Part shown: positions 1-23,365 of the stretch, one piece after another
How positions within the stretch are numbered: position 1 is the stretch's first letter
Layout: each line of letters begins with the position of its first letter
DNA from: Solirubrobacterales bacterium
Lineage (GTDB): Bacteria; Actinomycetota; Thermoleophilia; Solirubrobacterales; 70-9
Length of the DNA stretch: 64,000 nt
Assembly: GCA_035573435.1 (NCBI GenBank)
Contig: DATMZR010000036.1
Span: 62,001-126,000 of the forward strand
Direction of reading: 5' to 3'
Notes under the pieces: generated by a model
Database searches by the model: none
What the model was told of the DNA's origin: nothing
What the model saw: only the letters and a program-made list of their open reading frames with translations
Position numbers and translations under genes: made by a program

Positions 1-154
1 CGACAACGTTCAGGTGGTTGGGCCGTGAGTCAAGCCACGGTGGCCGCAACGTTCGAAGCGTGGTGTGGCGCCTGTACACTCGGCCGCTGCTCGAGGCCAG
101 AGCCAACCATTGGCGAGGGCGCCAGGAACTCGATGGGCCAAGAGCTCGATTGGG

Positions 155-967
155 ATGATCGATCGCCTGAAGCGCACGCGCCGCCGGGTTCTTCGCCGCT
201 GGCGCTACCGGCACGTGCGCGACTGGATCGTTGGCCCGCCCGACTTCGTCGGCGTCGGTACGCAGCGTTCCGGGACGACGTGGTGGTGGCGGCTGCTCTG
301 CGACCATCCCCGGGTCCACGAGCCGGCGGGCGGGAAGGAGATCCACTTCTTCGACAAGTACTTCGCGCGTGACTTCTCCGACGACGACGTGCGTGCCTAC
401 CACCGAATCTTCACCCGGCCCAAGGGAACGATCACCGGAGAGTGGTGTCCGCGCTACATGCACGACTTCTGGACGCCGGCTCTCCTGCGCAGGGCCGCGC
501 CCGACGCGAAGCTCCTGGTACTACTCAGAGACCCGGTCGGTCGCTATCGGTCGGGCCTCAGCCACGAGCTGGATGTGCTCCAGCGGGATGTGCGGGGTAA
601 GCGCCGCGGGTATGTGGGCGCGATGGACGCGAACGATGCCCTGAGCCGCAGCCTGTACGGCAGGCAGCTGCGGAGGCTGTTCGAGCACTTCGACCGAGCG
701 CAGGTCCTGGTGCTCCAATACGAGCAGTGCGTGCAGGACCCCAGAGCAGAGCTCCGGCGGACCTATGAGTTCGTCGGCGCCGACGTTCCCCACCACGTGC
801 CGACGTTTCTCACCGATCGAGCCGGTCAGTCGCATCCTCAGGTAGAGGTCATGGATGAGGTGACGGAGGCGGCACGCCACATCATCCACAGTGATCTGGC
901 CGAGCTGAAAGCCCTCGTTCCGGAGATCGACTTCAACCTCTGGCCCTCGTGCCAGGCCATCGGTTAG
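155..967 (+). CDS. PAPS-dependent sulfotransferase (carbohydrate type)
   Basis: Predicted to move a sulfuryl group from PAPS onto a hydroxyl or amine, most likely of a sugar chain given the neighbours. With the ATG at 155 the protein has 270 residues, normal for this family. The 5'-phosphosulfate loop GTQRSGTTW lies at residues 35-43 and the 3'-phosphate-binding region RDPVGRYRSG near residue 125, two hallmarks of the heparan/Golgi sulfotransferase fold. An arginine-rich N-terminus (residues 4-22) precedes the domain; no convincing membrane helix is seen. The frame stays open upstream to 65, but those residues look unrelated and there is no good ribosome site there. It converges tail-to-tail, 7 bases apart, with the lyase-like lipoprotein. 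The family call is solid; the acceptor is unknown. Confidence 0.85.
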   Translation: MIDRLKRTRRRVLRRWRYRHVRDWIVGPPDFVGVGTQRSGTTWWWRLLCDHPRVHEPAGGKEIHFFDKYFARDFSDDDVRAYHRIFTRPKGTITGEWCPRYMHDFWTPALLRRAAPDAKLLVLLRDPVGRYRSGLSHELDVLQRDVRGKRRGYVGAMDANDALSRSLYGRQLRRLFEHFDRAQVLVLQYEQCVQDPRAELRRTYEFVGADVPHHVPTFLTDRAGQSHPQVEVMDEVTEAARHIIHSDLAELKALVPEIDFNLWPSCQAIG

Positions 968-974
968 GAACCGC

Positions 975-2075
975 TCAGGGCTGGATCGCCCGCCGCAGCT
1001 CTTGGACCGATCGCCCCCCCCAGGGGTCGCTGGGCGAGTGGGCGAGGACCTCGACGTTCGCATAGTCCCGACTGACTGAGGGCAGGCTTACGTGGTTGTA
1101 AGGGCCGATCGAGAGCATGGCGTAGCTGTCGCCCCCGTTGAGCGTCCCCGAGGTGATCCTCTCCGTCAGGGGACGGTACCGCCAGTAGTTGCTGTCGCCG
1201 TTGGTATCACCCCAGAGCCGGAAAGCGCCCTCGGTCTGATCACTGTCAAATTGGACATCGATGCAGAGGCGCAGCCATTTTCCGCGCGGCACGTCCCGGA
1301 AGAAGTACTCCCTGACGTGCTGGCCCTGGTTGTAATTGTTAACGAGCTTCAGTCCATTCCGACCTTCGAGCATTGAGAGGATTGGACCCCCGTGGGTCTT
1401 GATCTGCCACACCTGTGAGTACTTGGTATTGCCGCCTCCGGGACCGACGTTGTACGGCAGCGGCGTGGGGGCTTGCAGGCGAACACCCATGCAGGTGAGG
1501 CTTCTCGTGCCGGCTCTGTAGCAGTAGAAGGTGTTGCTGCACGACTGGTTTATGAGTTGCGTTCGTGTCGAGTCTCGCTGGTGGTGGAAGTCCCATTCGC
1601 TCTGAGACACAACGCGCGAGCCTGAACGAGGTGTGCCGCTACCTCCTCTTACCCCGATGAAGCGCTGCGCCCTCTTGCCAAGATAGGTCACCTGTGTGTA
1701 CGAACTGCCCTTCTGAATCCACAGGTGGCCGGACGTCGGGAACCCGGCGGTCGACCGAACGTTGAGGCTTAGGCGTGGCAGGGTCTGCGACGCCGACAAC
1801 TTCGTTTCCTCGATCTTCAGCGTCCGGTACCCGTGGTGGACGATGCCGTTGATGTCCGGGTGCGGATCCCCGCCGGTGGCGTGATAGGAGATCAGGGGAT
1901 CCTGCTCGGCCTTGTAGCAGCACGCCCCCTGGTCGAAGGCATCCGAGACCCCACGCCATTCCGAGACCGGATTCGGATTCGTCACTGGATCGCTTTGGAC
2001 CTTGGTGCAGCCGGCGAGGGCGAGCGCGAGTAGGGCGAACAGAGCGCCCAACGAAGCGCGAGGTGCTTGTTTCAC
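975..2075 (-). CDS. Lipoprotein with heparin-lyase-like (concanavalin-like) fold
   Basis: A 366-residue exported lipoprotein. Residues 1-22 form a lipoprotein signal peptide ending in the lipobox LALAGC, so the Cys would be lipidated and the protein anchored outside the membrane. The rest resembles the jelly-roll polysaccharide lyase family that includes heparin lyase I: a segment around YSQVWQIKTHGGP followed by LSMLEGRNGLKL, and later GKWLRLCIDVQF with DTNGDSNYW. These are fold-level similarities; I cannot confirm catalytic residues, so it may bind rather than cleave a glycan. The start is GTG with AGAGAGG five bases upstream. A c-di-AMP riboswitch occupies its leader. The adjacent sulfotransferase and the C5-epimerase at 12.3 kb suggest a uronic-acid-containing substrate. 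Confidence 0.7.
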   Translation of the reverse strand: MKQAPRASLGALFALLALALAGCTKVQSDPVTNPNPVSEWRGVSDAFDQGACCYKAEQDPLISYHATGGDPHPDINGIVHHGYRTLKIEETKLSASQTLPRLSLNVRSTAGFPTSGHLWIQKGSSYTQVTYLGKRAQRFIGVRGGSGTPRSGSRVVSQSEWDFHHQRDSTRTQLINQSCSNTFYCYRAGTRSLTCMGVRLQAPTPLPYNVGPGGGNTKYSQVWQIKTHGGPILSMLEGRNGLKLVNNYNQGQHVREYFFRDVPRGKWLRLCIDVQFDSDQTEGAFRLWGDTNGDSNYWRYRPLTERITSGTLNGGDSYAMLSIGPYNHVSLPSVSRDYANVEVLAHSPSDPWGGRSVQELRRAIQP

Positions 2076-2089
2076 AATGCCTCTCTTGG

Positions 2090-2213
2090 TCGCTTACGGG
2101 GTTAGCTGACGGGCTAGCGCCGAAAGGAAGCGCTATGCGGACCACTTGCCACGATTCGCCCCGGGTGGGATCTGGGTCCCCCGTTCCCGCGGATATGTGG
2201 CGGGACTCAGCGA
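2090..2213 (-). promoter_or_regulatory. c-di-AMP (ydaO/yuaA) riboswitch for the lyase-like lipoprotein
   Basis: Read on the minus strand, the leader carries the ordered conserved blocks of the ydaO/yuaA class: ACGGGGGACCCA, then GGGGCGAATC, then CCCGTCAGCTAACCCCGTA. Outer arms TCGCT and AGCGA at the two ends can form P1. It ends a few bases before the AGAGAGG ribosome site of the GTG start at 2075. In this class c-di-AMP binding normally turns expression off. I compared with remembered consensus blocks, not a covariance model. Confidence 0.88.
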
Positions 2214-2256
2214 GAAGTTGCGCAACCCTAGCAAGACCTGCAGACGAAACTCACAA

Positions 2257-2300: not shown

Positions 2301-2484
2301 GGGCTGTCGAGCGAACCGGAGGCCGTGACCGGTCTCCACGGCGCTCGAAACCCGCGCGGGAGCACGAAGGCAAGGGTCTCGGCGGGCGAGACGGCTCAGC
2401 TGTGGACAGAGGGGAGTCCCCTGCGCTGGGCCATATCCTGCATTGAATGCGCGGCGAGACGCCGACGGAGTAGGGCGGCGCCAG

Positions 2485-3567
2485 ATGAAGGGTGAGCTTC
2501 ACGACAGCCTCGAGTCGATACTGCCGGAGTGGGAGGAGTTGTTCCGCTCCGACCCCGAAGCGACCCCGTTCATGTCACCCGAATGGGCACGAGCGTGGTG
2601 GCCGAGCTGGGGAAGTTCGAGCCGGCCGTGGACTGTCGTCGTTCGCGATAGCGGCCGGCTCGTGGGCCTCGCGCCGTTCATCCTCCGCAGACGCGGCCCC
2701 CTTCGGATCCTGGGGCGGCCCGGCTCACACCCGAGCCAGGACATCCTGGCCACGTCTGAGCTGCGGCCGGCTGTGGCGGAGGAGGTGGTTCGCGAGATCG
2801 TCAAGAGGCGCAGGGAGTGGGACCTTCTGGCGATCAGCTGGTTCCCCGAGACCTCGTCCATCCAGCCCTCGATGAAGCGGCAGGGGCTGCGCCTGCGGGA
2901 GCGCCGTACGGCCACCTACCCTCGGCTCGAGCTTCCTTCCAGCTTCGACGAGTATCTGGAATGGCTTCCGCGCAAGCGCAGAAAGGACCTCAGGCGCCAC
3001 CTTCGCCGACTCGACGACGGTGAGCTCGAGGTCGTTCGGGTCGGGGAGCCGGCGGCGATCGGCGCCGCGGTCGATCGCTGGCATGCCTTGAAGCTGAGCT
3101 GGTGGGAAGCCAAGGAGGACACGGAGATCCACCCCGGGCAGCGTGGCTCGCGATACGTCGGATTCCTGCGGGAGCTGATGCCGCTGATGGTCTCCGCCGG
3201 GCTCGGCGAGGTCTGGGAGCTCCGACACTCAGGACAGGTCGTGGGCGTCGAGGTCAGCCTGCTCGACCGGCGCAACTTCTACTCCTGGCAGGGAGGCTAT
3301 GACCTCGAGGTCGCTCACCTGGGACCGGGAAAGGTCGCGATCGGGGAGGGCATACGGGCTTCGATTGCCGCTGGGCGCCGCTACTACGACCTGATGCGGG
3401 GCGCGGACAGCTACAAGTACTGGTACGGATGCCGCGATCGAGAGAGCCGCTCTCTGCTGATTGGGAACAGCCGTCCGACGTCCCGCGCGGCCCTGCTCGC
3501 GATCGGTCCCTACGAGCGGCTTCGGGGTTCCTCGGGAACCGACTCGCCGGACGGGGCAGGGGACTAG
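2485..3567 (+). CDS. BioF2/CelD-type (GNAT/FemAB-like) acyltransferase
   Basis: A protein of about 360 residues resembling the BioF2-like acetyltransferase domain found in CelD/BcsL proteins of polysaccharide loci, with an N-acyltransferase fold shared with GNAT and FemAB enzymes. Supporting segments are the basic stretch LPRKRRKDLRRHLRRL, the core GEVWELRHSGQVVGVEV, YSWQGGYDLEVAHLGPGK, and the C-terminal YYDLMRGADSYKYWYG. It probably transfers an acyl or aminoacyl group to an envelope glycan or its precursor; the donor is unknown. ATG 2485 is preceded by GGAGTAGGG. An in-frame ATG at 2443 would add 14 residues without a clear ribosome site. Its 3' end overlaps the convergent ATP-grasp gene by 4 bases. 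Confidence 0.75.
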   Translation: MKGELHDSLESILPEWEELFRSDPEATPFMSPEWARAWWPSWGSSSRPWTVVVRDSGRLVGLAPFILRRRGPLRILGRPGSHPSQDILATSELRPAVAEEVVREIVKRRREWDLLAISWFPETSSIQPSMKRQGLRLRERRTATYPRLELPSSFDEYLEWLPRKRRKDLRRHLRRLDDGELEVVRVGEPAAIGAAVDRWHALKLSWWEAKEDTEIHPGQRGSRYVGFLRELMPLMVSAGLGEVWELRHSGQVVGVEVSLLDRRNFYSWQGGYDLEVAHLGPGKVAIGEGIRASIAAGRRYYDLMRGADSYKYWYGCRDRESRSLLIGNSRPTSRAALLAIGPYERLRGSSGTDSPDGAGD

Positions 3568-10724: not shown

Positions 10725-10782
10725 CGGTCGGGACGCGGACCTGCACCGGTAATTGGGGCACCCCGTAACGTGCCCACCGGTT

Positions 10783-12336
10783 ATGAACGAGAAGGACTCT
10801 CAGGCTCCCCGCGAGCTGACCGGGACGGTCGTGCGCGGCGTCGGCTTGGCCGGTGGCGGATACCTGATCACTCAGGTGATCAACTTCGCCATCTACCTGG
10901 TGCTGGCGCGGCTCGCCACGCCCACCGATTTCGGCCAACTGGCGGCGGGCGCCGTGGTCGTGCTCGCCGGGCTCTCGTTGGCCGATTCCGGCCTCAACGC
11001 GGCAGTCGTCCAGCGCCGCGACCGGATCGAGGAGGCGGCGAGCACTGCCGTAGTGGCAGTCGTGCTCAGCGGCGTCCTGTTCACGGCCGCGGCGCTCGCG
11101 ATCTCCCCGCTGATCGGCCGCCTATTCCACAGCCACGAGGTGACCCTGGTGGCGGCTGCCTCCTCCGGCTGGATCCTCATCCGCTCGTTCGCGATCATCC
11201 CGGACTCCATGCTCCAGCGGCGCTTCTCGTTCCTGCGCCGGGCGGTGATCGACCCTCTGGGCATGGTTGTGTTCGGGGCGGTCGCAATCGCGACCACCGC
11301 GGCGGGCATGGGGGTCTGGGGGCTCGTCCTTGGCAACTACGCCCAGTTCACGACCATGGCCGTGTCGTCGTGGGTGCTGGGGCGGTGGCGACCGAAGCTG
11401 CGGCTCGCGTCGGTGGCGATGTGGCGGGAGCTGGTCGCCTTCGGGCGCCACGTCATGACTTCGAACATGCTCGTTCGGCTCGGTGGGGTGATCCAAACGT
11501 CGCTCATCGGGCGCCTCTTCGGCACGGACACGTTGGGCCAGTTTCGATACGGGTCTCGCGTCACCTCGTCACCACTGGGGGCATTGATGAACGCAGGTTC
11601 CTACGTTCTCTATCCGGCCCTTTCGCGGATCTCGGACGACGCGCGGAGATTCGAGCGCGGATTCCTGCGCTCGGTCCGCCTGACGTGCGCGACCGCGATG
11701 CCGTTGAGCTTCGCGCTGCTGCCGCTCGGGGTCCCCATCGCGCTCGTCGTCTTCGGGCCGCAGTGGCGGGAGGCGGGCGAGCTCATCAGTGCGATGTTCG
11801 CCTACTCCGGAGCGCGCGCCTTCATCTCCACCACCAGGGAGACGTTCAAGGCGTCGGGTCGGTCGGAGCGCTTGACGAGGATCCAGCTCGTCTCCTTCGT
11901 GCTCACCCTGGGCCTGATCGTCGCCTTCTCATGGATCGGACCGGTCGGGGTTGGCATCGGCATCTCTCTCAGTTCGATCGGCACCGCGGTGTACGCGACA
12001 CGAGCCGTCTCCCCGATCACCGGGGTCCCGGTGCGACGCATCGCAGCCGAGATCTGGCCGCCCATGGTTGCGTCGGCGGTGATGGCGGCCGCAGTCTTCC
12101 TGGCGCAGCTCGCAGTCGAGCCAGAGGCTCATGGCACCGCGGTGGGGATGATCCTGTTGGCCGGGGATGTGTTGTTGGCAGGCGTTGTCTATCTCGGAGC
12201 GCTGACCGTGATCGCGCCGGGGACCGCTCGGGAGCTGCGGGAGATCATGAGCCAGCTTCGTGAGCGCCTGCCGTGGCGCCGGGCTTCCGCCTCCGCCGTC
12301 GAGCCGGAATCGAACGCAGCTGTTCCCAACCCCTGA
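10783..12336 (+). CDS. Wzx-type polysaccharide flippase (MOP superfamily)
   Basis: A protein of about 517 residues with 12 or more hydrophobic helices, of the Wzx/MviN-like polysaccharide transporter type. The opening VRGVGLAGGGYLITQVINFA and the later LARLATPTDFGQLA are typical of this family, which flips undecaprenyl-diphosphate-linked oligosaccharides across the inner membrane. The C-terminal 40 residues are hydrophilic and basic. ATG 10783 is used; the frame is open to a TTG at 10753, but that would add an unlikely N-terminus. It ends 10 bases before the convergent C5-epimerase gene. Confidence 0.88.
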   Translation: MNEKDSQAPRELTGTVVRGVGLAGGGYLITQVINFAIYLVLARLATPTDFGQLAAGAVVVLAGLSLADSGLNAAVVQRRDRIEEAASTAVVAVVLSGVLFTAAALAISPLIGRLFHSHEVTLVAAASSGWILIRSFAIIPDSMLQRRFSFLRRAVIDPLGMVVFGAVAIATTAAGMGVWGLVLGNYAQFTTMAVSSWVLGRWRPKLRLASVAMWRELVAFGRHVMTSNMLVRLGGVIQTSLIGRLFGTDTLGQFRYGSRVTSSPLGALMNAGSYVLYPALSRISDDARRFERGFLRSVRLTCATAMPLSFALLPLGVPIALVVFGPQWREAGELISAMFAYSGARAFISTTRETFKASGRSERLTRIQLVSFVLTLGLIVAFSWIGPVGVGIGISLSSIGTAVYATRAVSPITGVPVRRIAAEIWPPMVASAVMAAAVFLAQLAVEPEAHGTAVGMILLAGDVLLAGVVYLGALTVIAPGTARELREIMSQLRERLPWRRASASAVEPESNAAVPNP

Positions 12337-12346
12337 TGCCGCGGGG

Positions 12347-13324
12347 CTAGGCCGCCGGATCCTCGCCGAGCTCAGCCGTTCGCTCGCCCGGCACACTGCT
12401 GGTCCGGTCCCAGGGCAGGCGACCCGCGAGGAGCCGGTTGCGAGGAACCAGGATTCGGAATGTCGTCTTGTGGGCAAGGGCGCGCATCCTGGCCAGGCGT
12501 CGCTCCTGGTAGGCCTCGAACACCGAACAGGCGCTCGCGAACTCGGGGCGGTCGGTGAGCAGAGCCATTGCCTTGAGCTGCTCTATATGGAGGCGGTGAT
12601 ATGCGGGACTGGCGACGTTGGTCACGGCATGGGGGAAGAGGTCGTAGCGCGACCAGTAGCCCGTGTCGTAACGGTCGAGCATCCCGGCAAGGGTCTCGAC
12701 ACTCTCGTCATAGAGCCGCTGGGCGTCCGGGTCGCCGAGGGCGCGGGCCGCGTCGAAGCACCCCCAGATCGCGAACATGCCGCCGTTGAGCACGCAGGAG
12801 GGCGGATCGGTTGGGTACTCCTCCAGGAAGATCCCATGGTCGAGTTGGGCCATCGCGCCGCCCGCGCGCGGCGTCCGGCTGAGCGGTCCGATCGCCTTCA
12901 AGGCCGCTTCTGCGAACCGCTCCTCCGACGTCTCTTGGTAGATGCGGATGAGTAGGCTCGCGCCCTCGCCCTGCGCCATCGCGGAGACCCATGGCGGGCG
13001 GAGGGGGAACGTGTGAGGGAAGGTGTACCTGTGAAGCCACGCTCCGGCAGCCTGCCCGTCCGCCTCCTGACGGTTGACCAACCACTCCGCTGCCGAGGTC
13101 GCGACACTGCGCCAGGCCTCCCCGTCGCCGGCGAGGTAGCGCTCGTAGTAGGCGAGGCCGCGTTGCGCGACAGAAACGTAGGACTCCTGGTGCGATGCCA
13201 GCCAGGCCGGGGGCCATTCGGGAGAGGGAGCCTTGACACGGAAGTCGATCGGGTAGCCTCGCGTCTCCGTGGCGCTCAGCTGGGCGCCCATAGGCAGATC
13301 GAAAGAACGCAGTTGGCGGGGCAT
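12347..13324 (-). CDS. D-glucuronyl C5-epimerase family protein
   Basis: About 325 residues matching the C-terminal catalytic domain of D-glucuronyl C5-epimerases, which convert D-glucuronate to L-iduronate within a polymer. Seen directly: GLAYYERYLAGDGEAW early on, ADGQAAGAWLHRYTFPHTFP and PPWVSAMAQGEGASLLIRIY in the middle, LEEYPTDPPSCVLNGGMFAI, and YDTGYWSRYDLFPHAVTNVA with YHRLHIEQLKA at the end. The paired tyrosines and Glu around YWSRYDL correspond to the conserved active-site region of the eukaryotic enzyme. Bacterial homologues with this activity are known. No signal peptide is visible, so the site of action is unclear. ATG 13324 is used, leaving 26 bases to the divergent glycosyltransferase start; a longer reading would overlap that gene. 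Confidence 0.85.
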   Translation of the reverse strand: MPRQLRSFDLPMGAQLSATETRGYPIDFRVKAPSPEWPPAWLASHQESYVSVAQRGLAYYERYLAGDGEAWRSVATSAAEWLVNRQEADGQAAGAWLHRYTFPHTFPLRPPWVSAMAQGEGASLLIRIYQETSEERFAEAALKAIGPLSRTPRAGGAMAQLDHGIFLEEYPTDPPSCVLNGGMFAIWGCFDAARALGDPDAQRLYDESVETLAGMLDRYDTGYWSRYDLFPHAVTNVASPAYHRLHIEQLKAMALLTDRPEFASACSVFEAYQERRLARMRALAHKTTFRILVPRNRLLAGRLPWDRTSSVPGERTAELGEDPAA

Positions 13325-13338
13325 GCGACGGCCCAGAG

Positions 13339-13344
13339 TAGCTT
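13339..13344 (+). promoter_or_regulatory. -10 box TAGCTT of a likely leaderless promoter
   Basis: TAGCTT is followed by exactly six bases and then ATG 13351, the arrangement also seen before pcrA, cysE, ndh and the gene at 39428. It implies transcription starts at or next to the start codon. Confidence 0.5.
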
Positions 13345-13350
13345 CGCCGG

Positions 13351-14520
13351 ATGAGCAGGACCCCAAAGGCACGAAAGCTTCGCCATCTGACCCTCGTCGA
13401 CCGGATCGGCTCCTTCGGCGGGGGAGAGCGGCTTGCCGCCGAGTTCTCGAAGCGGCTCTCACCTGAACGCTTCGACAGAATTCTTTGTGCAACACGCTGG
13501 GGACCCGAGGTCGAGTCGCGGCCGACCCGGGCGCAGGCGGTCGACGATCTCTCTGAGCACGGCGTCAGGTTCGTCGGCCTCGACCGCAGGCACGCCCTGG
13601 GCCTGCGGTCGTGGCGAGAGCTCCTGCTGTTGATGCGCCGGGAGCGGATCGACGTCCTGCACGCGCACAAGTTCGGCTCAAATCTGTGGGCCGCCCTCCT
13701 GGGGCCACGCGCGGGCGTGCCGCTGATCGTCGCCCACGAGCACACGTGGTCGTTCGAGGGCGGCGCCCAGCGGCGCTTCATCGACCGCCAGGTGATCGCC
13801 CGTCGCTGCGACATGGTGGTGGCGGTCTCTCGCGAGGACCGGCGCAGGCTGGTCGAGCTCGAGGGGCTACCCCCGGAGCGCGTGGTCTACATCCCGAACG
13901 GCATCCCCGCGCCGCCACCTCCGACGGGAGCCGTGCAACGCGCCGGCCTCGGCCTCCACGAGGACGATCTCGTGGTTGGGACGGTGGGCGTCCTTCGGCC
14001 CCAGAAGGCGCTGGACGTCCTCGTCAAAGCGGCCGCGATCCTGCGCGGGGAGTTTCCCAGCCTGCGCGTCCTCATGGTCGGCGCCGGACCGGACTACGGG
14101 ACGCTCGAGAAGCTGATCGATGACCTCGACCTCTCGAACACGGTCAGCATGCTCGGCTTCCGCACGGACGTCCCCGAGCTGCTGCCGATCTTCGACGTGG
14201 CAGCATCTTCATCCGACTTCGAGGGCAGTCCCCTGGCGGTCCTGGAGTACATGGAGGCGGGCCTGCCCGTGGTCTCGACCAGGGTCGGCGGGGTCCCTGA
14301 CCTGGTCGAAGACGGGGTCACGGGCCTGCTGGTGGACCGGGGGGATCCCGGGGCGCTCGCGCGCGCGATCGCTGAGCTGCTCCGCGACCCCGACCGGCGC
14401 GCTCGGATGGGACATGAAGCCCGTGAACGGCGGCGGCGCGAGTTCGACATCAATCACACGGTCGAGCGCATCGAGCAGCTCTACGAGGATCTCTGGCGCG
14501 ACAAGGCTGGAGCCGGCTAG
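13351..14520 (+). CDS. Family 4 glycosyltransferase
   Basis: A 389-residue GT-B fold retaining glycosyltransferase. The N-terminal acceptor domain starts with VDRIGSFGGGERLAAEFSKR. The donor domain has VGTVGVLRPQKALDVLVKA near residue 210, VLMVGAGPDYGTLEKL, and the GT4 signature SSDFEGSPLAVLEYMEAGLP near 288-306 with the conserved E-x7-E pair, followed by VGGVPDLVEDGVTGLLV. It probably adds a hexose or uronic acid to the lipid-linked repeat unit. It is divergent from the C5-epimerase, and its end overlaps the convergent Wzy-like gene by 4 bases. Confidence 0.88.
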   Translation: MSRTPKARKLRHLTLVDRIGSFGGGERLAAEFSKRLSPERFDRILCATRWGPEVESRPTRAQAVDDLSEHGVRFVGLDRRHALGLRSWRELLLLMRRERIDVLHAHKFGSNLWAALLGPRAGVPLIVAHEHTWSFEGGAQRRFIDRQVIARRCDMVVAVSREDRRRLVELEGLPPERVVYIPNGIPAPPPPTGAVQRAGLGLHEDDLVVGTVGVLRPQKALDVLVKAAAILRGEFPSLRVLMVGAGPDYGTLEKLIDDLDLSNTVSMLGFRTDVPELLPIFDVAASSSDFEGSPLAVLEYMEAGLPVVSTRVGGVPDLVEDGVTGLLVDRGDPGALARAIAELLRDPDRRARMGHEARERRRREFDINHTVERIEQLYEDLWRDKAGAG

Positions 14521-15914
14521 GTCGGTGCAGGGCGCCGCTCGATCCTCCGGGAGACCGCGAGCAATGCCGGGCCGATGGCGAGCAGCAGCCATAGCACCTT
14601 CGAGTATTGGTCGGAGAGGAAGAAATCGGCGGCGAGCAGGGCCAAGATGGCCACGATCACCGCGCGGGTTATGAGCTCCATCTCGCCGTCACCCAAGCGG
14701 GCGAAGCGCCGTGCCGCCAGGACAGCAGCTCGCAGCGATCCTGCGACGATCAAGAGGAAGAGGCACAGGCCGACGACCCCGAGCTCGGCCAAGAAGCCCA
14801 GGTAGATGTTGTGAGCGACATGGGGCTCGTCCACCACGTACTTGTCCTGCTGAAGCGCCCCGGGCTCGACCAGGAGGTAGTGGATCGAGGAAACGGGGAA
14901 GTTCCCTGCCCCGACGCCCGTGACCGGGTTCGCTTCCACCATCCGCCACCCGACCTTCCAGATGTCGGTCCGCCCGCTGCCGCCGTCCGCCTCGAACAGC
15001 CTGTGCCCCGCGGCGGGAACCACCGCCGTGAAGTACCCGATCGCGATCACCGCCACGAGTAGCGCCAGGCTGGCGGCCAGGAAGCGTCGCCCGCGCGCGA
15101 CGAGCACCGTCGCCACCATCGCCGCGCCGAGGGCGAACAGGCCACCCCTGGAGACCGTGAAGAAGATGCCGAGCAGGGTGATCGTGGCCGCGGCCGCGGC
15201 CGCGAGGCGGACCGCGCTCGATCGTGCGCTGCTTGCTGCCAGCGCGATCGAGAGCGTGAAGCCGACCACGAGCACCGATGCCAGCTGATTGGGATCGCCA
15301 ATCGTGCCGGCGAGCCGGTTGAGCCCGCTGGCGGAGGTCGGTCCTGTCGCGTAGCCGGCTGCGCTGGGCTGCGCGACGATGCCGTAGAGCCCGGCGATCA
15401 CGGCGCCGGCGACGAGCGCTCCGATCAAGGCGCGCACTTGCTTGCGGCTTTGGATCGCCGTGAAGACCACCAGGAACAGCGCCGCGTTGAGCACGTAGCG
15501 GAGCAACGCGGAGGTCGTGGCGCCCGGCTGCTCGGCCCAGATCGTGCTCATCGTGACCCAGAGGAGGAACAGTGCGATGCACCAGGACATCCACGGGTGG
15601 ACCGCCCAGAACAACTCTTCCGACCGGTCCCGGGTGGCGATTCTCGCCAACCAGGAGATCGCCAGCGCGAGCCCCGCGAGCTTGGTGATGTTCACCGCCA
15701 GGCCCGCCCCCGGCGTCAGGCTGAGAAACGTGATCAGCGTGAAGAGCACCAACCCCGAGGCCAGGTCCGCCGTGGCGATCAGCACGAACGCAATGCCGAA
15801 CGCTGCGAGGATCGCCAGGGTCGGGTCGCGGCCGGCGAGGAGGCCGATGGCTGCGGCCGTGGCCCCGAAACCCGCGGCGAATCCCCAGTTAGGCCCTGCC
15901 AGCCTGCCTACCAA
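14517..15914 (-). CDS. O-antigen ligase/Wzy polymerase-like membrane protein
   Basis: A 465-residue polytopic membrane protein with about 11-12 helices. The large periplasmic loop contains GRTDIWKVGWRMVEANPVTG and VAHNIYLGFLAELGVVGL, the conserved signature of the WaaL/Wzy_C family, whose members polymerise repeat units or ligate glycans. Because the gene directly follows the Wzz-kinase gene (11 bases apart, same strand), polymerase is the more likely role. The best start is TTG 15914, with no strong ribosome site, suggesting coupling to the upstream gene. Confidence 0.82.
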   Translation of the reverse strand: MVGRLAGPNWGFAAGFGATAAAIGLLAGRDPTLAILAAFGIAFVLIATADLASGLVLFTLITFLSLTPGAGLAVNITKLAGLALAISWLARIATRDRSEELFWAVHPWMSWCIALFLLWVTMSTIWAEQPGATTSALLRYVLNAALFLVVFTAIQSRKQVRALIGALVAGAVIAGLYGIVAQPSAAGYATGPTSASGLNRLAGTIGDPNQLASVLVVGFTLSIALAASSARSSAVRLAAAAAATITLLGIFFTVSRGGLFALGAAMVATVLVARGRRFLAASLALLVAVIAIGYFTAVVPAAGHRLFEADGGSGRTDIWKVGWRMVEANPVTGVGAGNFPVSSIHYLLVEPGALQQDKYVVDEPHVAHNIYLGFLAELGVVGLCLFLLIVAGSLRAAVLAARRFARLGDGEMELITRAVIVAILALLAADFFLSDQYSKVLWLLLAIGPALLAVSRRIERRPAPT

Positions 15915-15924
15915 GGTGGTGAGC

Positions 15925-17559
15925 CTACTCGGATCGTGGGGCGCCGCTGCGAACCGGTTCGCCGGCCGGATCGGCCAGGTCGCCGCTGATCACCGGCCGC
16001 GGCCTTTCCTGCTGGCGTCGCTGGGCGGCGTAGTAGTGGTAGTCCGATCGCCTGGGCTTCGGCGTGCCGACGACCGCAAACCCGACTGGCCTGATGCCAT
16101 GCTCGGCGAGCAACTCGCCGAGGTGCGAGAGCTTCCTGAGGTCGGTCCTGCCGATCCCGGCGACGAGCAATACCTCGTCCATGTAGCTGGCGAGGGGCAG
16201 CGCGTCGATGACATCGCCGAGCGGAGCCGAGTCGACCACGACGTAGTCGGCCAGGCGGCGAGCCTCAGCGATCATCTCCCGCGCGGCCGGCAGGGAGAAA
16301 AGATCGCTGATCCACCCCCCGGCGTAGTCGGCCAGAAGCAGGCCGAAGTTCGAGCCGAGGGTGGACGTTGCCACGAGCGCATCCTGAAGCGCCACGCTGT
16401 CGATGAGCACGCTCTCGATCCCGTACTTGACCTGCACATCGAGTGCCTGCGCGATCGCGGGCCTTCGCAGGTCGGCCTCGATGAGGATCACGCTGTGGCC
16501 AACGGAGGCGAGCGACGACGCCAAGTTGATCGCCGTGGTCGTCTTGCCCTCGGAGGAGGAGCTCCCGGTGACGAGGATCGCGGAGGAGTCGGCGCCCGAG
16601 GCGCGGCGCGACGCTGCGAGCGTTCCCCGGAGTGTCCGGTAGGCCTCCAGCTCGGCCAGCGACAGGTCCGTCGGGGCGAGCGGCTTGCTGGTCCGCCGTT
16701 GCTTTCTCGGGATGCGCGCCAGGATCGGCAGTCGGTACAGACGCTTCAGCTGCTCCTCGCGCCGCAGGCGCGGGTCGAGCAACTCGAACGCGAATGCGCC
16801 ACCGATGCCGAGCACCAACCCAGCAAGCAGCCCGCCGGCGATGCTGAGCTTGGTCTTCGGCGAGCTCGGCGATGACGGGGCGTCCGCATTGGTCTGGATG
16901 GTGATCGTGGGGTCCGGGCCGCTGCGGAGCGTCTCGAGGACCGTGACTGCTCCCCGAAGCTCCCGCAGCGAGGTCGGGCCTCCGGGTACGGCCGCCGCCT
17001 CGGCGCGGCGCTGGAGCCCGGGCAGCGTCCGGTCGATCGCGGCGTGGAGCGTCGCGGTCTGTTCGGCAACCGACTGCGCCGCGAAGGCATTGGCCAGATC
17101 CCGTGCCTTGTCCGGCGAGTCTCCCTTCGCGGTGACGGCAACTATGTTGCTCTGGGCGACCGGTTCCGCGGTCACCTTCTCCAGCAGCGCATTCGCGGTC
17201 TTCGGTGAGTTGAGTTCCTGCTTGACACGGTTGGCGACGTCCACGTTCGTCACCAGCTGAGCTGCCGTCTCGACGTCGCGGGTGGGGTCGGATGACTGGT
17301 GGATCAACGGCAGGCTGGACAGGGTCGTGTCCGTCCCGGGCACAGCGGTGATGAGGAGATCCGCGGTGGCCTCGTACACCTTGTTCGCCGTGACCACGTA
17401 CACGATCGCGATGCTGGTGGTGAGCACGACCGCCGCCACAACGATCCAGATCCGCTCGCGCAGGATCCGGACGTATTGGCGCAGACCGGCCTCTTCCTCG
17501 GGAGGCTGGAGCCAGTCGGTGGTCCCTGCTTGTCTGAGATCGGAGCTTGCCCCGTCCAT
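15925..17559 (-). CDS. Wzz chain-length determinant fused to BY-kinase
   Basis: A 544-residue polysaccharide co-polymerase. Residues about 25-60 hold the Wzz N-terminal domain and first helix (IVVAAVVLTTSIAIVYVV). The second helix, IAGGLLAGLVLGIGGAFAF, lies near 245, and a cytoplasmic CpsD-type kinase follows. Walker A is GSSSSEGKTTT near 338. The Walker A' strand reads ILIEADLRRP, with Glu where Asp is usual, and the Walker B area reads VVVDSAPLGD rather than DTPP. A short Tyr cluster (YHYY) near the C-terminus could be the autophosphorylation tail. It controls polymer length together with the adjacent Wzy-like protein, and is divergent from a GT4 gene. Confidence 0.88.
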   Translation of the reverse strand: MDGASSDLRQAGTTDWLQPPEEEAGLRQYVRILRERIWIVVAAVVLTTSIAIVYVVTANKVYEATADLLITAVPGTDTTLSSLPLIHQSSDPTRDVETAAQLVTNVDVANRVKQELNSPKTANALLEKVTAEPVAQSNIVAVTAKGDSPDKARDLANAFAAQSVAEQTATLHAAIDRTLPGLQRRAEAAAVPGGPTSLRELRGAVTVLETLRSGPDPTITIQTNADAPSSPSSPKTKLSIAGGLLAGLVLGIGGAFAFELLDPRLRREEQLKRLYRLPILARIPRKQRRTSKPLAPTDLSLAELEAYRTLRGTLAASRRASGADSSAILVTGSSSSEGKTTTAINLASSLASVGHSVILIEADLRRPAIAQALDVQVKYGIESVLIDSVALQDALVATSTLGSNFGLLLADYAGGWISDLFSLPAAREMIAEARRLADYVVVDSAPLGDVIDALPLASYMDEVLLVAGIGRTDLRKLSHLGELLAEHGIRPVGFAVVGTPKPRRSDYHYYAAQRRQQERPRPVISGDLADPAGEPVRSGAPRSE

Positions 17560-17697
17560 TGGAGACAGGATTGTTGCATTGGCGGCGGAGGAGCTTGGGT
17601 CTGGGCTTGCGAGACCTCGCTTGGCGCCGGCACGCCCAGGTAGGATTCCGCACCAATTTCTCCACTCTGAACGAGAGATGTCCTAGGAAACTCGCCG

Positions 17698-18843
17698 GTG
17701 CGGCTGGCCGTCTACACGGACTACGTCTATCGCGAGGTGGACGGTGAGGTGTTCGCCGAGCGCGCGTTCGCCCTCTTTCTTGGGCGCTTGAGCGGCGCCG
17801 TCGATCGCCTCGTGCTCATCGGCCGAGAGGCCCCGGAGCCTGATCGCACGCGCTATGCGGTTGGGTCCCGCGTCGAGCTCGTGTCGCTGCCGTACTACCA
17901 GCGTTTGTCGGACCCGTGGGCGGTCCTGCGCTCCTCGGTCTTATCGCTGGCGAGGTTCTGGCGAGCCCTCCGAGACGTGGACTGCGTTTGGCTGCTTGGG
18001 CCGCACCCGGTCGCGATCGTCTTCGCGGGCCTGGCGGCCATGCGGCGCAAGAAGATTGTCCTCGGGGTGCGCCAGGACATGCCCGCCTACGTGGAGTCGC
18101 GGCACCCGGGCCAGCGACTCCTTCGGCTCGCTGGCCGCGCTCTCGACCTCGCGTTCCGAGTGCTCGCACGCGTGTTTCCTGTCGTGGTTGTGGGCCCGGG
18201 GATCGCGGCCCGCTACGGGAAGGCGAGGTCGGTGCTCGAGATCGCCGTTTCCCTGATCGACGCCGACGACGTCGTGCCGCCGGCGGTCGCGCTGCAGCGC
18301 TCCTACGATGGCGAGATCCGGGTCATCAGCGTTGGCCGGCTCGAGGCCGAGAAGAACCCGCTGCTGCTCGCCGACGTGCTTGCGCGCCTCGGGGAGAACG
18401 GCGATCGCTGGCGCCTGGTCGTCTGCGGCGAGGGCCCGCTGCAGGCGGCGCTCGAGGATCGCCTCCAGGAGCTCGGTCTTGCCGAGCGCGCCGAGCTGGT
18501 GGGCTACGTTCCCTTCGGCCCGCGCCTCCTTTCGCTCTATCGAGAGAGCCACGCGATGCTCCACGTGTCCTGGACAGAGGGGTTGCCCCAGGTGATCGTG
18601 GAGGCCTTCGCCGCCGGTGTTCCGGTGGTTGCGACCGACGTCGGAGGGGTTGCGGAGGCGTTCGGGGACACGGTGCGCCTCATCCCAGCCGGAGACGCCG
18701 ATGCGGCGGCCGGCGCGCTCCGGGAGATCGTCGCCGACCCGAGGCTGCGGCAGGCGCTCGTGCAGGGTGGCCACGACCAGGCTGCGGCGCGGACGGCCGG
18801 CATCGAGGTGGAGCGCGTCGCCGAGTTCCTGCGTCGCGCCTGA
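17698..18843 (+). CDS. Family 4 glycosyltransferase
   Basis: A 381-residue GT-B glycosyltransferase. It opens with RLAVYTDYVYREVDGEVFAE and has a middle segment VISVGRLEAEKNPLLLADVL near residue 205 that begins the donor domain. The signature VSWTEGLPQVIVEAFAAGVP near 285-304 provides the E-x7-E catalytic pair, followed by ATDVGGVAEAFGD. GTG 17698 has TAGGAAA about 8 bases upstream, which could be a ribosome site or a -10 element. It ends one base before the convergent epimerase gene. It probably assembles the repeat unit; donor and acceptor are unknown. Confidence 0.88.
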   Translation: MRLAVYTDYVYREVDGEVFAERAFALFLGRLSGAVDRLVLIGREAPEPDRTRYAVGSRVELVSLPYYQRLSDPWAVLRSSVLSLARFWRALRDVDCVWLLGPHPVAIVFAGLAAMRRKKIVLGVRQDMPAYVESRHPGQRLLRLAGRALDLAFRVLARVFPVVVVGPGIAARYGKARSVLEIAVSLIDADDVVPPAVALQRSYDGEIRVISVGRLEAEKNPLLLADVLARLGENGDRWRLVVCGEGPLQAALEDRLQELGLAERAELVGYVPFGPRLLSLYRESHAMLHVSWTEGLPQVIVEAFAAGVPVVATDVGGVAEAFGDTVRLIPAGDADAAAGALREIVADPRLRQALVQGGHDQAAARTAGIEVERVAEFLRRA

Positions 18844-22070: not shown

Positions 22071-22179
22071 CCGATCGGATGGGGGAGGGGCCCCCGTGTT
22101 GCAGGATCCCTTGCAGGCCCGCCTTTCGCAAGGCTGGCTTCATAACTTCCTAACGATTCGCTAGGATGCCCCGCTCAAA

Positions 22180-22320
22180 CCGCCGAGCCTTCCGGGCTTT
22201 CCGGAAGGGCGGGGGAACCGCTGGGACGGTCCGTGTGGCTCGTCTCGGGGGCGAATCGCGGCGACACCGCCGCGTAGCGCCAGTCCTTCGGCGCGAGCCC
22301 GTCAGCTAACCCCGTAGGCA
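22180..22320 (+). promoter_or_regulatory. c-di-AMP (ydaO/yuaA) riboswitch for the transglycosylase-like gene
   Basis: In order: GGGCGGGGGAACC, GGGGGCGAATCGCGGC and GAGCCCGTCAGCTAACCCCG followed by TAGGC, the conserved blocks of the ydaO/yuaA class. GCC at 22182-22184 can pair with GGC at 22317-22319 to close P1. The next gene starts only 8 bases later. Riboswitches of this class commonly precede wall hydrolase and resuscitation-factor genes in actinobacteria, which matches. A TAGGAT box at 22162-22167 is a candidate -10. Confidence 0.9.
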
Positions 22321-22327
22321 GTGAAGG

Positions 22328-23365
22328 ATGTCGCCCGCCAACTTGACAGAAGCCGCACGGTGGCGCGCCCGGGGATGGGTTCGCCGTGGCGGCGTGCTTG
22401 CGCTCCTCGTGGGCGTCGCGATCGCGGTGCCCGCTGCCCGGACAGGCGCCCAAAGCGTCGACGATCTGAACTCCAGAATCGCCTCGGCCCAATCGCAGGC
22501 GGAGAGCCTTGGCGCCAGGATCGACGCCACCACCTCGCAGCTCGGGGCCGCCCGGTCGCAGGCCGCGGCTGCCGCCGCACGGGAAGCCGAGCTCTCTGCG
22601 GTCCTGGCGGAAGGGCAGGAGCGCGAAGCCCAGCTCGAGATCCGCGTTCAAGAGGCGACGGCGCAGCTCGCCCGCGCGCGAACGCGCCTGCACCGCGCTC
22701 TGGGGGCGCTCTCGGCCCGTCTCGTCTCCATCTACAAGAGCGATGCGCCGGATGCGACCGAGCTGCTGCTGAACGCAAGGGGCTTCGATGACCTCGCCAA
22801 TCGCGCCGAGCTGCTCGGCCGGATCGAGGACGCTGACGCGGCGCTCGCCGCCAGGGTGCGTGTGCTCCGCGACCTGGTCTCGGCGCACCTCGCCGAGGTG
22901 AAGCAGGCTCGCGCCCAGGCGGTCGCCTTCAATCAGCGGGTGGCCGCCGCTCGCGACGAGATCGCGAGCGTTCGCGCCACCGCCGAGGCCCAGGCGGCAC
23001 AGCTCGACCAGGCTCGCGCGGAGCAGGCCGCGGCGCTCTCCAGCCTTCGTTCCCAGGTGGCCAGCTGGGAGCAGCAGGTCGTCGACGCCCAGCAAGTCTC
23101 GGCGGCTCAGGCTCAGGCGACCGTGTCCAGCTGGTTCGGCGATTGGGCCATTCCGCAGGCGATCGTGATGTGCGAGTCCGGCGGCAACTTCGGCGCGATC
23201 AACCCGTCGTCGGGGGCGGGTGGCGCGTACCAGATCCTGCCATCGACCTGGCGCATGTACGGCGGCCATGGCTCACCCCAAAGCGCCTCTCCGGAAGAGC
23301 AGGGCAGGGTCGCCTCACAGATCTGGGCCGACTCCGGATCAAGCGCTTGGGAGTGCGCCCAGTAG
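22328..23365 (+). CDS. Secreted coiled-coil protein with transglycosylase-like (Rpf/SLT-type) domain
   Basis: A 345-residue exported wall enzyme candidate. Residues about 20-41 form a signal peptide (RRGGVLALLVGVAIAVPAA, then ARTGAQS). Residues 45-265 are an alanine/glutamine-rich coiled coil like those of NlpC/EnvC-type wall proteins. The C-terminal 80 residues hold a lysozyme-like domain: PQAIVMCESGGNFGAINPSS, with the catalytic Glu in CESGG, then GAYQILPSTWRMYGG and a final WECAQ. It probably cleaves or binds peptidoglycan. The gene is under a c-di-AMP riboswitch. ATG 22328 immediately follows AAGG, unusually close for a ribosome site, so initiation may depend on the riboswitch fold. Confidence 0.85.
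   Translation: MSPANLTEAARWRARGWVRRGGVLALLVGVAIAVPAARTGAQSVDDLNSRIASAQSQAESLGARIDATTSQLGAARSQAAAAAAREAELSAVLAEGQEREAQLEIRVQEATAQLARARTRLHRALGALSARLVSIYKSDAPDATELLLNARGFDDLANRAELLGRIEDADAALAARVRVLRDLVSAHLAEVKQARAQAVAFNQRVAAARDEIASVRATAEAQAAQLDQARAEQAAALSSLRSQVASWEQQVVDAQQVSAAQAQATVSSWFGDWAIPQAIVMCESGGNFGAINPSSGAGGAYQILPSTWRMYGGHGSPQSASPEEQGRVASQIWADSGSSAWECAQ

What the first reader, a model, noticed from the sequence alone, without database searches (positions are those of the whole stretch)
2076..2213. c-di-AMP riboswitch controlling a heparin-lyase-like lipoprotein
A full set of ydaO/yuaA conserved blocks precedes a surface lipoprotein with a polysaccharide-lyase fold. This class usually precedes peptidoglycan hydrolase, potassium or osmolyte genes; a glycan-lyase-like lipoprotein would extend the c-di-AMP regulon to an extracellular polysaccharide.
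Basis: partly seen in the sequence, partly recalled or inferred. Interest (0 to 1): 0.7.

Follow-up and report, generated by a model that had tools for sequence, protein, structure and literature searches.

The report
c-di-AMP riboswitch before exopolysaccharide-lyase-like gene
In an uncultured actinobacterium, an RNA sensor for the signal c-di-AMP, normally used to control cell-wall enzymes, sits directly in front of a surface protein that looks like a slime-degrading enzyme and lies beside slime-making genes, suggesting the signal also controls the outer polysaccharide coat.

Summary
The riboswitch is real: RF00379 at 2222-2076 (-), 76.6 bits against 38, intact at all 50 columns conserved in 114 relatives. 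Four bases after its Shine-Dalgarno-like end, a 366-aa predicted lipoprotein starts. Its lyase-like domain is weak: PF14099 25.0 bits, cut-off 29.9; the nearest solved relative is a glucuronan lyase, not a heparin lyase (E 0.0064). Context favours an exopolysaccharide role: the gene lies beside a sulfotransferase and a Wzx/Wzy/Wzz cluster; another of the genome's 10 c-di-AMP riboswitches precedes a PslG-like glycosidase; and in relative G087 the orthologous locus has a PF14099 gene behind a c-di-GMP-I riboswitch. Across 114 riboswitches the 3' pseudoknot strand co-varies with its loop and usually overlaps the Shine-Dalgarno, supporting a translational OFF switch. Direct c-di-AMP-riboswitch-to-lyase pairing was not found again in 299 class genomes, so recurrence is unproven. 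An ordinary class member with an unusual target.

The parts
2076..2222 (-). c-di-AMP (ydaO/yuaA, RF00379) riboswitch aptamer
   Evidence: cmscan 76.6 bits, E 5e-16, model 1-134; 0 deviations at 50 conserved columns
2122..2127 (-). loop strand CCUUUC of the predicted pseudoknot
   Evidence: 6 pairs with one G-U to the Shine-Dalgarno-like strand
2080..2085 (-). GAGAGG: 3' strand of the pseudoknot and Shine-Dalgarno-like sequence, 4 nt before the start codon
   Evidence: sequence; pairing and spacing
975..2075 (-). 366-aa predicted lipoprotein (LALAGC lipobox by eye), lyase-like domain about residues 158-291, GTG start
   Evidence: ORF; PF14099 25.0 bits, below cut-off
65..967 (+). sulfotransferase gene next to the lipoprotein gene
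   Evidence: PF13469 E 3e-17, PF00685 E 2.2e-14
2443..3567 (+). GNAT (Acetyltransf_6) gene, divergent from the riboswitch
   Evidence: PF13480 E 4.8e-29
10753..18843 (.). exopolysaccharide-type cluster: Wzx-like flippase, two glycosyltransferases, Wzy_C, Wzz
   Evidence: Pfam
22171..22335 (+). second c-di-AMP riboswitch, of the usual cell-wall kind
   Evidence: RF00379 67.7 bits; next ORF 22328-23365 has Transglycosylas E 1.4e-15

Best explanation
This is a standard c-di-AMP riboswitch used as a translational OFF switch for a surface lipoprotein that trims or cuts the cell's own exopolysaccharide. Shown by computation: an intact aptamer; its conserved 3' pseudoknot strand lies on the Shine-Dalgarno-like GAGAGG 4 nt before the start codon; the gene lies near a Wzx/Wzy-type polysaccharide cluster. 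Inferred: c-di-AMP closes the pseudoknot and hides the ribosome site; when c-di-AMP falls, the lipoprotein is made. Also inferred: the lipoprotein is an active beta-eliminating lyase (or a polysaccharide-binding relative) acting on the polymer made next door.
For: RF00379 76.6 bits; 0 of 50 conserved columns changed. The genome has one DAC gene. No terminator-like site in 1900-2400. Over 114 riboswitches the loop and tail of the same molecule pair better than swapped ones: mean Watson-Crick run 6.35, permuted mean 5.10, 0 of 5000 as high. Permuting only within identity groups weakens this but does not remove it (0, 10 and 112 of 3000 reach the observed value at 65, 70 and 75% identity). Median distance from pseudoknot strand to start codon is 7 nt, at most 10 nt in 82 of 111. 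The best anti-Shine-Dalgarno match overlaps the pseudoknot strand in 89 of 113. C. glutamicum nlpC is regulated at translation by this class, and that paper proposes a loop/RBS pseudoknot (PMC9960051, Discussion read). EPS context. PslG-like second target. Orthologous locus in G087 with a riboswitch before a PF14099 gene.
Against: The focal pseudoknot is weaker than most: longest Watson-Crick run 3, 6 with one G-U, against a mean of 7.2 with G-U; 74 of the 114 tails offer its loop a longer run than its own tail. A homologue of the lipoprotein was found in only one other genome of 299, and the three same-genus relatives lack it. Direct c-di-AMP riboswitch plus PF14099 was not seen again; in G116 the PF14099 gene is second in line. 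PF14099 cut-off not reached. Nothing shows enzymatic activity; the one structure model is unusable. Minimum-energy folding of the leader is no better than shuffles (z -0.23).
Confidence: 0.6

Rival explanations
1. The riboswitch is functional, but the lipoprotein is a cell-wall or binding protein (lectin-like jelly roll) and not an exopolysaccharide lyase, so the c-di-AMP regulon here stays within envelope or peptidoglycan remodelling.
For: Nearly all other targets are of cell-wall type: of 104 downstream ORFs scanned, 31 match M23, 20 PG_binding_1, 18 DPBB_1 and 6 Transglycosylas, families overlapping. The lyase domain is below cut-off. A non-catalytic jelly roll cannot be excluded.
Against: The gene lies near an EPS cluster. 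Distant similarity is to PF14099 and glucuronan lyase. His72, Arg199, Gln221, Gln224 and Tyr326 are invariant among six relatives, which would suit a lyase centre (inference).
Confidence: 0.3
2. The riboswitch acts on transcription, as in B. subtilis and as reported for S. coelicolor rpfA, rather than on the ribosome site.
For: Terminated transcripts were reported in vitro for S. coelicolor (cited in PMC9960051).
Against: No terminator-like site in 1900-2400; the start codon is 4 nt from the pseudoknot strand, leaving no room for a separate platform before the ORF.
Confidence: 0.15
3. The riboswitch landed in front of this gene by a lineage-specific rearrangement and is a non-functional or transient arrangement.
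For: The gene and the arrangement are unique to this genome among 50 family genomes (the one other homologue, in G087, lacks an RF00379).
Against: All 50 conserved aptamer columns are intact, as are the Shine-Dalgarno-like spacing and the reading frame. A second glycan-enzyme target in the same genome (PslG-like) suggests selection.
Confidence: 0.1

Closest known systems
ydaO/yuaA c-di-AMP riboswitch of C. glutamicum nlpC (PMC9960051)
   Same: Same RNA class; proposed translational OFF control through a loop/ribosome-site pseudoknot
   Different: Target there is an NlpC/P60 peptidase; here a lyase-like lipoprotein at an exopolysaccharide locus
S. coelicolor rpfA c-di-AMP riboswitch (as described in PMC9960051)
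   Same: Same class, cell-surface target in an actinobacterium
   Different: Target is a resuscitation-promoting factor; transcriptional action reported there. The window's second riboswitch (22171-22335) is the nearer parallel
Glucuronan lyase A (PDB 2zzj) / Pfam PF14099
   Same: Distant profile similarity over the jelly-roll region
   Different: Marginal E-value 0.0064; the lipoprotein has a lipobox and an inserted stretch of about 50 residues that its five aligned relatives lack
PslG (PDB 4zn2, 5bx9)
   Same: Sequence relative (E 1.9e-12) of another c-di-AMP riboswitch target in this genome
   Different: Not the finding's own gene; substrate unknown here
c-di-GMP-I riboswitch before PF14099 genes in G087 and G228
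   Same: Lyase-like secreted protein behind a cyclic-dinucleotide riboswitch; in G087 within the orthologous exopolysaccharide locus
   Different: Different RNA class and ligand

Membership tests
RF00379 c-di-AMP riboswitch | Covariance-model score above the gathering score | tested here: met
   76.6 against 38 bits
RF00379 c-di-AMP riboswitch | Conserved aptamer positions intact | tested here: met
   0 deviations at 50 columns conserved at 90% or more in 114 sequences
RF00379 c-di-AMP riboswitch | 3' pseudoknot | tested here: met
   6 pairs with one G-U in the focal copy; covariation in the set. The focal copy is weaker than average
RF00379 c-di-AMP riboswitch | Binds c-di-AMP | not testable with these tools
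   needs in-line probing
Pfam PF14099 Polysacc_lyase | Score above the gathering cut-off | tested here: not met
   25.0 against 29.9 bits; three neighbouring paralogues do pass, so it is called lyase-like only
Heparin lyase | Sequence match to a solved heparin lyase | tested here: inconclusive
   profile search of the PDB at E up to 1 returned 2 entries, neither a heparin lyase
Heparin lyase | Cleavage of heparin | not testable with these tools
   needs an enzyme assay
Bacterial lipoprotein | Signal peptide with lipobox | tested here: inconclusive
   LALAGC at residues 18-23 read by eye; no predictor was run

The most novel reading that the evidence does not exclude
Control of exopolysaccharide-degrading enzymes was taken over by c-di-AMP riboswitches in this lineage, in place of the c-di-GMP-I riboswitches used by relatives. 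The orthologous exopolysaccharide locus carries a lyase-like gene behind a c-di-GMP-I riboswitch in G087 and behind a c-di-AMP riboswitch here. The focal genome has no c-di-GMP-I riboswitch and a second c-di-AMP riboswitch before a PslG-like glycosidase.
Probability: 0.3. Interest if true: 0.75.

Novelty: new member of a known kind. Interest (0 to 1): 0.5.

Why it matters
c-di-AMP riboswitches in actinobacteria are described as controlling cell-wall genes almost exclusively (PMC9960051, citing Nelson et al. 2013). Targets that cut exopolysaccharide would tie c-di-AMP to matrix remodelling, a role usually given to c-di-GMP. They would also show two second messengers exchanging riboswitches over the same kind of gene. 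The survey adds comparative support for the Shine-Dalgarno pseudoknot mechanism proposed from one C. glutamicum case.

Tried and rejected
Structure prediction of the lipoprotein from its single sequence gave mean pLDDT 31; no fold search was made on it. PDB search with the single sequence gave only chance-level hits (EscU, E 0.48 and worse).

A search for named relatives of the lipoprotein found none. ArgG was then used to name the group: best matches are Solirubrobacterales, Thermoleophilaceae and unclassified Actinobacteria MAGs. No lyase relative was found in those 80 loci; flanks were 10 kb at most, and the exopolysaccharide gene may lie beyond them.

Recurrence test from the PF14099 side: 69 hits in 28 of 299 class genomes. 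All but one hit (G073:C186:3-605) lie in fetched loci; upstream flank was about 1.5 kb, cut by contig ends in some. RF00379 upstream on the same strand: the focal gene, and G116 where PF14099 is second in line. c-di-GMP-I upstream: 3 (G087 once, G228 twice in tandem). Those 28 genomes hold 117 RF00379 and 14 RF01051 matches. Taking about 90,000 genes in about 90 Mb (my estimate), chance adjacency would be about 0.09 and 0.01, so the c-di-GMP link is enriched and the c-di-AMP link alone is not.

Dropped rows: of 251 RF00379 matches in 41 genomes (sum of its table) I examined 119, mostly the higher-scoring. Five lacked the core motif at the expected place (L037, L042, L076, L102, L109), leaving 114. 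Start codons were assigned for 112 and ORFs of 80 aa or more for 104. Ninety of the 104 fall in four clusters of cell-wall or CAP type. Several of the 14 singletons are shadow frames of NlpC- or M23-like genes, judged by eye.

Riboswitch tree: the focal copy falls in a clade of 19 (support 0.944) with riboswitches of RlpA-like, CAP and PslG-like genes; its exact sister is unresolved (support 0).

Full report
Observation. cmscan of the full window gives two RF00379 matches above the gathering score: 2222-2076 (-), 76.6 bits, and 22171-22335 (+), 67.7 bits. The first is the finding. The ORF 2075-975 (-) begins with GTG four bases after GAGAGG. At the 50 alignment columns conserved in at least 90% of 114 related riboswitches the focal copy has no deviation.

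The genome. The window lies in a 2.58 Mb draft genome (43 contigs, 97% complete) with 10 RF00379 matches. ArgG matches named MAGs of Solirubrobacterales and Thermoleophilaceae best. All ten riboswitches lie directly before ORFs that look secreted, judged by eye. Assignments: CAP (L001), PslG-like (L002), the lyase-like lipoprotein (L003), RlpA-like with PG_binding_1 (L004), transglycosylase-like (L008). M23-like (L005, L007, L010) and NlpC-like (L006, L009) were judged by eye; L006 and L009 have no Pfam match. One diadenylate cyclase domain is present, and 11 GGDEF domains. No c-di-GMP-I riboswitch was found.

The lipoprotein. PF14099 matches residues 158-291 at 25.0 bits, below the 29.9 cut-off. 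Three paralogues over the cut-off lie on the other strand just before the window, with no Rfam match before them. A profile of six relatives hits glucuronan lyase A, PDB 2zzj, at E 0.0064; no heparin lyase appears at E up to 1. Among the six, His72, Arg199, Gln221, Gln224 and Tyr326 are invariant; that these suit a lyase active site is inference. The protein is rare: a homologue in one other genome (G087) of 299 in the class, and in none of the other 48 of 50 family genomes.

Neighbourhood. Sulfotransferase at 65-967, GNAT (Acetyltransf_6) at 2443-3567, ATP-grasp and oxidoreductase genes, then a Wzx-like flippase, glycosyltransferase, Wzy_C, Wzz and a second glycosyltransferase up to 18843. 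This is an exopolysaccharide-type cluster.

The same locus elsewhere. In G087 the genes for glycosyltransferase (54% identity), Wzy (40%), Wzz (48%), a second glycosyltransferase (47%), sortase (59%), ArgG (77%), the riboswitch-controlled transglycosylase-like protein (54%) and an MFS protein (60%) match those of the window. That locus also holds sulfotransferase, Acetyltransf_6 and PF14099 genes. The PF14099 gene starts about 10 nt after a c-di-GMP-I riboswitch. Its protein matches the focal lipoprotein at 28% identity (E 7e-12), and two of the paralogues just outside the window slightly better. The locus is therefore orthologous, but one-to-one orthology of the lyase genes is not shown. In G228 two tandem PF14099 genes each follow a c-di-GMP-I-GGC riboswitch. 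In G116 the single RF00379 of the genome lies upstream of a PF14099 gene, with a short ORF of 110 aa between them.

What c-di-GMP-I riboswitches control in this class. 118 of 299 genomes have one. Of 28 downstream proteins scanned, 7 match GH26, 8 subtilase, 5 the N_methyl pilin motif, 3 GHL15 and 1 PF14099. They came from 40 loci looked at: 9 were too short, 1 gave no ORF, and 2 short ORFs were left out. Glycan enzymes behind c-di-GMP riboswitches are thus common here, while among 104 c-di-AMP targets the only two glycan enzymes outside the cell-wall classes that I found are both in the focal genome.

Mechanism. The ydaO crystal-structure RNA has a known pseudoknot (PMC5393176, passages read). 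In this class its 3' strand usually overlaps the Shine-Dalgarno: median 7 nt to the start codon, at most 10 nt in 82 of 111; the best anti-Shine-Dalgarno match overlaps the pseudoknot strand in 89 of 113. Loop and tail of the same molecule pair better than permuted ones (6.35 against 5.10, 0 of 5000). For 61 loops without CTCTTT the values are 5.74 and 4.70, 0 of 5000. When tails are permuted only within identity groups the excess shrinks: 0, 10 and 112 of 3000 reach the observed Watson-Crick value at 65, 70 and 75%, and with G-U allowed 2, 92 and 10 of 3000. Part of the signal is therefore shared ancestry. In the focal copy the helix is CCUUUC/GAGAGG with one G-U, weaker than average. No terminator-like site is near. 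C. glutamicum nlpC gives the experimental precedent for translational repression and the proposal of such a pseudoknot (PMC9960051: abstract, passages and Discussion read).

Origin. The focal riboswitch groups (support 0.944) with those of RlpA-like, CAP and PslG-like genes. Recruitment of a cell-wall riboswitch lineage to new targets is the likeliest history (inference).

Literature. Seven searches (listings only, apart from PMC9960051, PMC5393176 and PMC7266159, of which I read the parts) showed no report of a c-di-AMP riboswitch before a polysaccharide lyase or a PslG-like gene. The primary gene lists (Nelson 2013, Block 2010) are not held, so this is not proof of novelty.

Verdict. The RNA is a routine member of a known class. 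The target is unusual. The exopolysaccharide role and the exchange with c-di-GMP riboswitches are plausible and testable but not shown.

Noticed in passing
window 22171-22335 (+): A second c-di-AMP riboswitch before a coiled-coil, transglycosylase-like secreted protein; the sortase, argG, riboswitch gene and MFS neighbours are kept in G087.
   Followed up: yes
L271 5432-6783 (-) (own genome, C28): A c-di-AMP riboswitch directly before a PslG-like glycosidase. PslG-like genes occur in 35 of 50 family genomes, up to 16 matches in one.
   Followed up: partly
L178 1285-3255 (+) (G228): Two tandem PF14099 genes, each behind its own c-di-GMP-I-GGC riboswitch with the same score, as if riboswitch and gene were duplicated together.
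   Followed up: partly
L206, L210, L211, L212, L217, L224, L233 and others: c-di-GMP-I riboswitches of this class precede GH26-like enzymes, subtilases and pilins.
   Followed up: partly
L055/L060 and L032/L039/L069/L110: Some c-di-AMP riboswitches precede short ORFs (roughly 40-60 codons) with similar starts, possibly small membrane proteins.
   Followed up: no
window 975-2075, residues about 110-160 of the protein: The lipoprotein carries an inserted stretch of about 50 residues that its five aligned relatives lack; by eye it resembles modules of phage tail proteins (recalled).
   Followed up: no
L268 3214-4708 (-) (G116): The only c-di-AMP riboswitch of that genome lies upstream of a PF14099 gene with a short ORF between; five other genomes of its family searched have none, so the contig may be foreign.
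   Followed up: partly
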